The position numbers were made by a program, and so were the translations under genes. This document shows, piece after piece, positions 53,701 to 57,470 of a DNA stretch of 64,000 bases. Below the pieces are notes generated by a model. That model searched no databases. It was not told the DNA's origin and saw only the letters and a program-made list of their open reading frames with translations. Every line of letters begins with the position of its first letter. Within the stretch, counting starts at the first letter, position 1. Source of the DNA: Branchiostoma floridae (lineage: Eukaryota > Chordata > Leptocardii > Amphioxiformes > Branchiostomatidae); NCBI RefSeq assembly GCF_000003815.2, contig NC_049979.1, forward strand, positions 28,824,249-28,888,248, given 5' to 3'.

Positions 53701-56700
53701 TGGCTGCATGATGGAAAACGGGTATCCTCATTTTGGGATCACTGCAACGTTTGATATTCGAAAGTATTGCAGTACCCACAAGTCGATGGTACTGCAACAC
53801 CTACAGGCTCCTGACACCAGCTTTTCCCGATTCACTACATTAGTACCCAGTGACGTGCTCAGTGGGTCAGTATCCCTTTCTGACAAAATTCTTGCACAAA
53901 GCAAAGAAAACGGCCTAAGCATCATACAAGGAGAGCTGATTGCTTACATATGCCAACAACTTGGCATCGAAGACCCGGCTGAAATCACCGATGAAATAAG
54001 CCCAGTATCCCTCGGGCTGGACTCCCTCTTGTCTGTGGACATGAGCAACGAAATAGCAGACAAGTTTGAAGTGACAGTTACATCCGTAGAACTCCTGAGT
54101 GACAAAATGACCGTCAAGATTCTGAGTGAATCCATCTATGAGAAGATGCTCAACCAAGCGGGTAACCAGGGAACAACAAGTGGCTCCCACAACCCAGAGG
54201 CAGCTGCCGAAGTAGACTCGTGGCTTCATTTCTTTGGTAACATCCAAGACCCAACCCTTACACTCGTCTGCTTTCCTGCAAATGGTGGAGGTCCATCCCT
54301 CTTTCACCAGTGGGGAGAGCATTTTGCAAAACACAACATTGAGGTTGTGGTCGCCACTCTGCCGGGATGGGAAAGTAGAGAAAAGGAATCTCCTATCAAC
54401 AGTCTGCAGCACATTGTTGGCACACTCGGGGCTCAAATCATGGAGATGATAATGCTCGACAAGACGATTGCATTCTATGGTCACAGTATGGGTGCACTCA
54501 TAGCATTTGAGGTTGCACATTTGCTCCACGCGGAAGGCAGTACATGCCCTTCTCATCTCTTTGCTGGAGGATGGTATGCTCCATCTCTACCCTACCCACA
54601 TCCACAGGAACTAAGGGTATCGCCCATTTTGTTTGATCCTTCAACGGGAACACAGCAGATCATGGAAGAGGCCAGAGCATTCTCCTTCCTCCCAGAAGCC
54701 GTTCTTAACAACCCGACTCGTCTGAGACGTCTGTTGCCATGTATCCAGGCAGGGATAACAATCTGCAAGTCGTACATCTGCCAGCACAATGAACCACTCC
54801 CGTGTAATGTTGTTGCTTTCGGCGGACAGGATGATCCATTCATCTCCCCAGACCTGCTTGACAAATGGAAGCTTGTTGCCTTCAATGAATCAGCTCCAAC
54901 ACAAGCGTTCAGGAAGTGCATTATGCAGGGTGGACATTTCTTCATCTCATCTTCAAGACAGGACGTCCTCAACAAAATCACTAGTATCCTACAAGAGGAC
55001 AGTGTAATCGTGAAACCATCAGACCAGAGAGACGTACCGAACGTGATCGATATGCAACCAAGTCCGACCGAGATTAGCACTGCTATGACTCCTATCCGGT
55101 CTGCACCTGTTATACATAAGGCAGCTGCGTATCTCCAATACCAACTGAAAGATCCCCGTTTCAGCAACACAAATCTGTACGTCATGTTTCGTACAAAGAA
55201 TGTCCCTGCTGATGTCGAAAGCTGGCGATCCATCTTTCGCCAGCTGATGGACCGCCATGAGACACTGAGGTCAACCTACCATGTCTTGAATGATGCACAA
55301 TATCACAGTGGAGTGCAGGCAAGGTACTACAACGAAATTGAAGGCGCTACTGACATCGACATATTGACTGGATATCAAGAGAACGAGGCCGAAGAAGAGG
55401 TGTTCCAGAGAACCAAAGTACCCTTCCAACTTGACAAGGAGTACCCAGCAAGGTGCATCGTTGCCCCCACTGGAAATAGGAGTGCTGTGGTTGGACTTGT
55501 CTTGCATCACATCGCAACAGATACAACCAGCTTCAACATACTATTTAGGGACTTTGCACAAATCATGAAATCAAATTTGAGAAAGAAATCTCTCCAGAAG
55601 CCGATGACAACACTGACGTATGGTGCTTTCATACAATACTACTACTCCTACCTTCAGCAGAACCAGAAGGAGCTACGAGAGTTTTGGAGGGCAGCCCTGC
55701 CTCCTACTATTCCATCCATTAATCTTCAATTTGCCAAGCCGAGACCATCAACCTTCTGCTCAGGAGGCGGCTCACTCGAGGTTAATCTGCCCAAGGAACA
55801 GGTCCGCAGCCTTATGGAATACGCGAAGGCCGTTCGCACCACTGTGTACAGCATTATGGCTACCACATATCAGCTCCTACTGCACATCTACACCAAACAC
55901 GACGACATCGTGATCGCATGTCCATTTGACATGAGGATGTTAGCTCCACAATTCTCCAATGTCCATGGTCTCTTTCAGCACCACTTACCATTGAGTGCCT
56001 CCTTCACGAACAAAGATCAGTCCTACCAAGACACCATTCGGCAGTATTGGCGCAAGTTGCAGGATTGCAAGAAACATGGCATCTATCCGATAGATGAAAT
56101 CATGAAAATGGTGTCGTATGAGAAGCACCCAGCAATGGAGCCCATCATGCAACATATAGTTGTTCAAAACGACATAACTAGTATGAACCAAATGTTCAAT
56201 GGTGCCACTGGTAAGAGAGTTAGATTACTCAGGAACGGTTACCATGACTTTCCAGAAGATTTTGTCCTCCATTTGTTCCAAGACACCAACACGAAAGATA
56301 TCACCTGTGGCGTCCGGTACTCAAAGTCGTTGTTTGACGAAGAAGTTGCACAGTGCATGGTAGACGACTATGTCTCATTGCTCTCCACGTGTCTTAAAAA
56401 CCCCAAATGGAGCCTTTCGGAAATCATCAACGCTGTAGAAATGACAGCCTTAAACTTCAAGTCCGATACCGGGAGCGGCAGGGATAATCATCAGTTACCC
56501 AACCAAGCAGCGTCACATAAGAATGGCAAATCCATACAACAGCAAGCAGTTCATGGACTGATCGATCCTCGACCCACTGATGTACCACATCTGACGAGCA
56601 ATGGACATTCTGACTATCCAACGGTCAATGGACGAAGTGACAGAGTCCCAGGGAGGGATGAGCTGCAGCTGCTACACTCTGACCTCTTGCGGAAGCTCCA

Positions 56701-57470: not shown

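What the first reader, a model, noticed from the sequence alone, without database searches (positions are those of the whole stretch)
54215..56705. Condensation domain placed after the thioesterase in an animal PKS
The same uninterrupted 7.2-kb exon encodes ACP (Ser2116), a thioesterase with Ser2270/Asp2386/His2420 and then a full condensation domain with H2610-H2611-xxx-D2615. In PKS/NRPS assembly lines the TE is normally last, and C domains sit upstream of a carrier protein. A C domain after the TE suggests the chain is either proof-read by the TE and released by C-catalysed transfer to an amine or alcohol acceptor, or hydrolysed and then re-esterified. The motifs are seen directly; the release model is inference.
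Basis: partly seen in the sequence, partly recalled or inferred. Interest (0 to 1): 0.88.

Follow-up and report, generated by a model that had tools for sequence, protein, structure and literature searches.

The report
Lancelet polyketide synthase with misplaced condensation domain
A giant lipid-making enzyme gene in what looks like a lancelet genome really does carry a peptide-bond-type condensation domain behind its chain-cutting domain; this layout was already listed in a 2015 table, but traces of a lost partner domain and a recurrent Patched-type neighbour gene suggest how the product might be released and exported.

Summary
The genome search found five copies, each TE-then-C in one frame. 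The order is not new in print: Hojo 2015 Table 2 lists Branchiostoma floridae PKSs as ACP-TE-C and ACP-TE-C-AMP.

New here: (1) three paralogs have an adenylation-like region after C that looks degenerate; the window gene lacks it. (2) C keeps HHxxxD and purifying selection but lacks the usual Gly after Asp, as do most bacterial C domains that use free amines. (3) TE is closest to stand-alone, type II-like thioesterases. (4) The tail is weakly PH-like. (5) All five C-domain PKSs and a related PKS on C9 are head-to-head with a Patched-family gene; nine other KS loci are not.

Best reading: TE edits; C transfers the ACP-bound chain to a free acceptor. A LovB-like relic C domain is the main rival.

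The parts
29766..30012 (+). PKS exon 1 (KS start), copy used in the model
   Evidence: GT donor, joins in frame to exon 2
25893..26139 (+). second copy of PKS exon 1 (275-nt repeat, 96% identical), possible alternative first exon, 796 bp from the start codon I chose for the Patched-type gene
46491..47980 (+). PKS exon 2: KS (C173 in DTACSSS) and start of AT
49039..49132 (+). PKS exon 3 (AT)
49509..56705 (+). PKS exon 4, 7197 nt open: AT-DH-KR-ACP-TE-C and linker
53936..54115 (+). ACP domain, S2116
54260..54985 (+). Thioesterase domain, S2270/D2386/H2420, closest to stand-alone (type II-like) TEs
55172..56425 (+). Condensation domain, HHIATDT at 2610-2616
56441..56695 (+). about 85-aa linker standing where P1-P3 have an adenylation-like region; perhaps a trace of its start (QAVHGLID against EETIHGYFQ)
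57004..57165 (+). PKS exon 5, first half of PH-like tail
57319..57470 (+). PKS exon 6, second half of PH-like tail and stop
22041..25096 (-). Patched/sterol-sensing-domain gene (two exon-size frames, start codon chosen by eye), divergent from the PKS
14929..18062 (-). second Patched-type gene upstream

Best explanation
This is a (probably lancelet) iterative reducing type I PKS, KS-AT-DH-KR-ACP, followed in the same chain by a type II-like thioesterase, an NRPS-type condensation domain and a PH-like tail. Shown: order, motifs, five copies, and a C-A unit whose A region looks degenerate in three paralogs and is missing here. Inferred: the KS-AT-DH-KR-ACP part builds a partly reduced chain (no ER found) from malonyl-CoA; the TE hydrolyses stalled or wrong chains; the C domain, with no A or carrier domain behind it, reaches back to the upstream ACP and transfers the finished chain to a free small amine or hydroxyl acceptor, so acting as an offloading acyltransferase. 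Inferred more weakly: the lipid product is moved by the Patched-family protein whose gene is divergently paired with the PKS.
For: Domain order and active-site residues. C fold complete in the model. HHxxxD in 5 of 5 copies. dN/dS of C, window against P1, P2, P3: 0.23, 0.27, 0.20; TE 0.19-0.22, KR 0.15-0.19, TE-C linker 0.31-0.48, C-tail linker 0.36-0.47. No A or carrier domain found after C in the window gene. The A region of P1 and P3 matches PF00501 but not its C-terminal partner domain at E up to 1; in P3, the one aligned, the phosphate loop is replaced (VMTTTTTPTRLVRG against VMYTSGSTGKPKG of LgrA); P2 reads alike in the alignment. Residue after Asp is T in 4 and S in 1 of 5 copies; in bacterial free-amine C domains it is S 42%, A 36%, G 17% (PMC13142362 section 9), while G is in 31 of 39 bacterial C domains that I aligned (39 of the 80 loci). 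TE nearest to 3qmw/3qmv, RifR and OLAH. Patched gene head-to-head at 6 of 6 loci of this group against 0 of 9 other KS loci.
Against: Of 63 positions conserved in at least 85% of the 39 bacterial C domains, 28 differ here, including N of FVNT (39 of 39), which is H2767. So the domain is divergent and may not catalyse. C is slightly less constrained than TE or KR, and in P2 against P3 more so (0.30, TE 0.18). T after Asp is not among the two residues named as commonest in the free-amine class. The TE triad is intact, so TE alone could release the product; when the query included the ACP, animal FAS also matched (2vz8, E 7.5e-5). No acceptor, product or transcript is known. LovB shows that a PKS can keep a C domain described as inactive.
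Confidence: 0.45

Rival explanations
1. The C domain is a catalytically silent relic or scaffold, as described for LovB, left after the A domain decayed. The TE releases a free acid.
For: A region degenerate-looking in paralogs and gone here. LovB carries a C-terminal C domain called inactive (PMC9055775 passages) or of unclear function, with loss of A and PCP suggested (PMC3705289 passages). TE triad intact. 28 of 63 conserved C positions changed. The X-domain has the same fold (4tx2, 4tx3; its catalytic silence is recalled).
Against: HHxxxD kept in 5 of 5 copies and dN/dS near that of TE, while the A region could be lost. Structural constraint alone could also explain this.
Confidence: 0.35
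2. C condenses the chain with an amino acid loaded on a carrier protein supplied in trans by another A-T protein.
For: C domains normally use carrier-bound acceptors (general knowledge). Branchiostoma NRPS-like A domains group with Ebony (PMC10531068 passages).
Against: No carrier domain after C: by Pfam in the window gene's open frame and in P3 and in P1's A region; in twin and P2 by alignment only. The A region looks degenerate where present. No partner protein was searched for.
Confidence: 0.12
3. Assembly or gene-model artefact: TE and C belong to different genes, or the gene is dead.
For: One paralog, P2, has an in-frame stop before its ACP, and the 98.5%-identical twin may be a misplaced haplotype.
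Against: TE and C share one open exon in 5 of 5 copies found, with matching splice sites behind it and dN/dS well below 1.
Confidence: 0.02

Closest known systems
B. floridae PKS models in Hojo et al. 2015 Table 2 (XP_002610053 KS-AT-DH-KR-ACP*-TE-C; XP_002598380 KS-AT-DH-KR*-ACP-TE-C-AMP; XP_002598386 KS-AT-DH-KR*-TE-C-AMP)
   Same: Same domain order, in what is probably the same species; probably these very genes (not checked by accession)
   Different: Listed only; no comment on TE-C, A degeneration, PH-like tail or Patched pairing in the passages that I saw; XP_002610053 is marked ACP*, whereas S2116 is intact here
Saccoglossus XP_002734101 (KS*-AT-DH-KR-ACP-C-AMP) and B. floridae XP_002589000 (ACP-C-AMP), same table
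   Same: Animal PKS with C-AMP behind the ACP
   Different: No TE listed between ACP and C; sequences not held here
Mollusc PKSs with C domains (Lin et al. 2024, PMC10764717)
   Same: Animal PKS clade in which some members carry an NRPS C domain
   Different: Position relative to a TE is not stated in the text that I saw; figure and supplements not seen
LovB, fungal lovastatin nonaketide synthase
   Same: Reducing PKS ending in a C domain without A; loss of A and PCP suggested
   Different: C described as inactive or truncated; released by a stand-alone TE (LovG), not one between ACP and C; fungal
OaaC and related fatty-acid-amide C domains (PMC13142362)
   Same: ACP-bound acyl donor, freely diffusing amine acceptor, Gly after HHxxxD mostly absent
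   Different: Free-standing bacterial homodimer; mostly S or A rather than T; acceptor proved there, not here
Stand-alone, type II-like thioesterases (3qmw/3qmv, RifR, OLAH)
   Same: Best sequence matches of this TE
   Different: Here fused inside the synthase
Mycobacterial Pks-PapA-MmpL lipid systems
   Same: PKS, C-like acyltransferase and RND-family transporter linked (recalled); NCBIfam Pks2 model matches the PKS part, below its cut-off
   Different: Separate proteins, bacterial; resemblance recalled, not tested

Membership tests
Type I polyketide synthase | KS-AT-ACP in one chain with active residues | tested here: met
PKS-NRPS hybrid | C-A-T module after the PKS ACP | tested here: not met
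   TE lies between ACP and C; no A or T found after C in the window gene; A region without T in P3
NRPS condensation domain (PF00668) | Pfam score over cut-off | tested here: met
   155.4 bits against 30.6
NRPS condensation domain (PF00668) | HHxxxDG motif | tested here: not met
   HHIATDT: HHxxxD kept, G replaced
NRPS condensation domain (PF00668) | C-domain fold | tested here: met
   predicted model only
Fatty-acid-amide C domain (OaaC class) | residue after Asp mostly S or A | tested here: inconclusive
   T in 4 of 5 copies, S in 1
Fatty-acid-amide C domain (OaaC class) | free-standing protein | tested here: not met
   fused
Fatty-acid-amide C domain (OaaC class) | acyl transfer to free amine | not testable with these tools
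   needs assay
Type II thioesterase | closest sequence relatives are TE II | tested here: met
   12 of 14 PDB sequences with E up to 0.01 are stand-alone thioesterases; the other two are a DEBS-RifR fusion and a PKS TE at E 0.0089 (class labels recalled)
Type II thioesterase | separate protein | tested here: not met
   fused in frame
PH domain | Pfam gathering score | tested here: not met
   15.5 bits against 25.1; PF00169 matches 4 of 4 copies scanned below cut-off (best E 0.017), another PH-like family, PF25343, 2 of 4; only PDB match of the profile is a centaurin-delta chain, E 0.21, while the single sequence matched only an intein, E 0.81
Adenylation domain of paralogs, active | P-loop and C-terminal subdomain | tested here: not met
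   no C-terminal subdomain match in P1 and P3; P-loop judged in P3; P2 by alignment only
Animal FAS-like PKS (AFPK) | KS nearer to FAS than to PKS by published HMMs | not tested
   models not held

The most novel reading that the evidence does not exclude
An animal megasynthase in which a decayed NRPS module was turned into an in-cis offloading acyltransferase: TE proof-reads, C releases the polyketide as an amide or ester of a free metabolite, a PH-like tail places the enzyme at a membrane, and a divergently transcribed Patched-family transporter exports the product. This would be a chordate counterpart of mycobacterial PKS-PapA-MmpL lipid export.
Probability: 0.2. Interest if true: 0.8.

Novelty: new variant of a known kind. 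Interest (0 to 1): 0.55.

Why it matters
Few animal PKS products are known (PMC10764717 passages). A C domain kept after its A domain decayed is a direct test of whether an animal PKS can release chains by transfer rather than hydrolysis. The PKS-Patched pairing, if functional, gives a chordate biosynthetic gene pair and a possible substrate class for little-studied Patched-related proteins.

Tried and rejected
Recent bacterial gene transfer of the C domain: no support. A first scan of genome contigs and one of viral contigs found no relative (the patterns chosen were poor). Bacterial TE-C fusions: a TE profile run over 392 ORFs of the 80 loci hit 7 ORFs, none with TE ahead of C in one ORF (about 4 kb upstream at most, profile made from the lancelet copies only). 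Of 568 plasmid records matched by the ACP-TE-C query I opened two, H16 and H18; in both TE and C lie in separate genes.

PH-domain reading: kept as weak, since no score passes a curated cut-off. The tail recurs only at the five loci (10 matches there, 1 more at E 4.2). KS tree: only 6 of 11 KS loci tried yielded a usable fragment, the C9 PKS was absent and one node had 44% support; not used, so the grouping of the C9 PKS rests on its A region alone. AT substrate (malonyl) rests on a recalled motif (NAFH).

Not found in print, as far as searched: PKS-Patched pairing (0 papers with all five terms; 'patched' 0 times in the main text of PMC12833800); PH domain with animal PKS ('pleckstrin homology' 0 in each of the 10 papers listed, of 207). 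Subscription papers and preprint servers were not searchable as such; all supplements were out of reach.

Full report
The observation. The 2476-aa open frame at 49370-56800 contains AT, DH, KR, PP-binding, Thioesterase (8.2e-21) and Condensation (2.7e-45) by Pfam. With exon 1 at 29766-30012, exon 2 at 46491-47980, exon 3 at 49039-49132 and two exons behind (57004-57165, 57319-57470) the protein has 3113 aa. Motifs of KS, AT, DH, KR, ACP, TE and C are present (motif patterns recalled). No ER domain was reported by Pfam.

More than chance. The genome in which the window lies (513 Mb, 431 contigs) fits Branchiostoma floridae by size and gene content, but no tool named it. It gives five PF00668 matches, all on contig C1 (6 candidates scored). 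Five of six PF00975 matches lie at the same loci, in the same open frames. One copy is an inverted twin 13 Mb away, 98.5% identical in exon 4, whose flanks match in pieces at 89-99%; an exon of the upstream Patched-type gene matches there at 99%. It may be a recent duplication or a misplaced haplotype; this was not resolved. The other three (P1, P2, P3) lie at 34.25-34.47 Mb and are 70-73% identical in exon 4. P2 has a stop ahead of its ACP.

A lost partner domain. In P1, P2 and P3 the C domain is followed in the same exon by an A-like region. The genome search with PF00501 listed it for P1 and P3, not P2 (13 of 144 candidates scored). Its PF00501 match covers positions 1-378 of 384 in P1 and 1-377 in P3, with no other family at E up to 1. 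Aligned to LgrA, the phosphate loop of P3 is replaced. I read the region as a degenerate A domain. The window gene and its twin have about 85 residues of linker instead, with a possible trace of the A start. A further PKS on contig C9 has KR, an ACP by motif (LGIDS, judged by eye) and an A region, with no TE or C match in the 1416-aa frame fetched. Its A region is 31% identical to that of P3. So the A region probably predates the window gene and was lost there (inference).

The C domain. The 80 best bacterial loci kept have 20-26% identity. AlphaFold2 with 39 of those 80 gives a full C fold. The nearest PDB chains include TycC, Txo1/2, HtmB2-CT, TomBC, LgrA and the X-domain. HHxxxD is kept in five of five copies, but the Gly after Asp is T (4) or S (1). 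G is present in 31 of 39 bacterial domains aligned. In C domains of fatty-acid-amide pathways, which use free amines, G is present in only 17% (PMC13142362; abstract and sections 9 and 10 seen). dN/dS of C against P1, P2, P3 is 0.23, 0.27, 0.20; TE 0.19-0.22, KR 0.15-0.19, DH 0.15-0.21, ACP 0.14-0.17, the region between DH and KR 0.25-0.28, TE-C linker 0.31-0.48, tail 0.21-0.25 (Nei-Gojobori, pairwise; KS not computed). So C is constrained, a little less than the core domains. Against catalysis: 28 of 63 positions conserved in bacteria differ here.

The TE. Its nearest solved relatives by sequence are 3qmw/3qmv (RedJ, name recalled), RifR and OLAH; 12 of 14 matches are stand-alone thioesterases (class labels recalled). 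With the ACP included, animal FAS also appeared, last of 14. This fits an editing or hydrolytic role beside C.

The tail. Exons 5 and 6 are 58-67% identical in P1-P3. PF00169 (PH) matches 4 of 4 copies scanned below cut-off, and another PH-like family 2 of 4 (the twin was not scanned). The profile's only PDB match is a centaurin-delta chain at E 0.21 (that it is a PH domain is recalled). The single sequence gave only an intein at E 0.81.

The neighbour. A Patched/sterol-sensing-domain gene (22041-25096, minus strand) starts 796 bp from the upstream copy of the PKS first exon, in divergent orientation (start codon chosen by eye). I grouped the 35 KS matches into 15 loci. Six (the five C-domain PKSs and the C9 PKS, joined to them by its A region) have a divergent Patched match 1.4-2.8 kb from the first KS exon; the other nine have none within 600 kb. 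Chance is about 4e-4 per locus with 31 Patched loci. The five C1 loci are copies and not independent, so this is one arrangement seen in two places, C1 and C9.

What is known. Hojo et al. 2015 (PMC4604110; passages and table rows seen) list B. floridae proteins as KS-AT-DH-KR-ACP*-TE-C and with TE-C-AMP, and one of B. floridae and one of an acorn worm as ACP-C-AMP without TE. Lin et al. 2024 (PMC10764717; one section and passages) report mollusc PKSs with C domains. PMC10531068 (passages) finds Branchiostoma NRPS-like A domains grouping with Ebony, with condensation domains. LovB is a known PKS with a leftover C domain (passages of PMC9055775 and PMC3705289). In the rows listed by my searches I saw no functional study of an animal TE-C protein; listings were cut at 10-20 rows of up to 704.

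Verdict. I favour C as an offloading acyltransferase to a free acceptor with TE as editor (0.45) over a silent relic (0.35).

Noticed in passing
window 14929-25096 and C1/C9 loci: Two Patched-type genes upstream; a Patched-type gene is head-to-head with all five C-domain PKSs and the C9 PKS, and absent near nine other KS loci.
   Followed up: partly
G000 C1:15.857-15.909 Mb: Inverted near-identical twin of much of the window: recent duplication or misplaced haplotype.
   Followed up: partly
window 25870-26144 and 29743-30017: First PKS exon duplicated (275 nt, 96%), also in the twin; P1-P3 show one match each.
   Followed up: partly
window 60881-60920: EF-hand (calmodulin-like, by eye) gene differs from the twin by 4 bases, which appears to break its frame here.
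   Followed up: partly
C9:12862501-12867000 (L058): Another PKS exon with KR, ACP motif and degenerate-looking A region, no TE or C match.
   Followed up: partly
window 829-1559, 61780-62000: Mobile-element-like ORF remnants (judged by eye).
   Followed up: no
window 63599-64000 and 45259-45386: Tandem repeat array of 50-59 nt units at the window end; an AGAA array of about 32 copies at 45259-45386.
   Followed up: no
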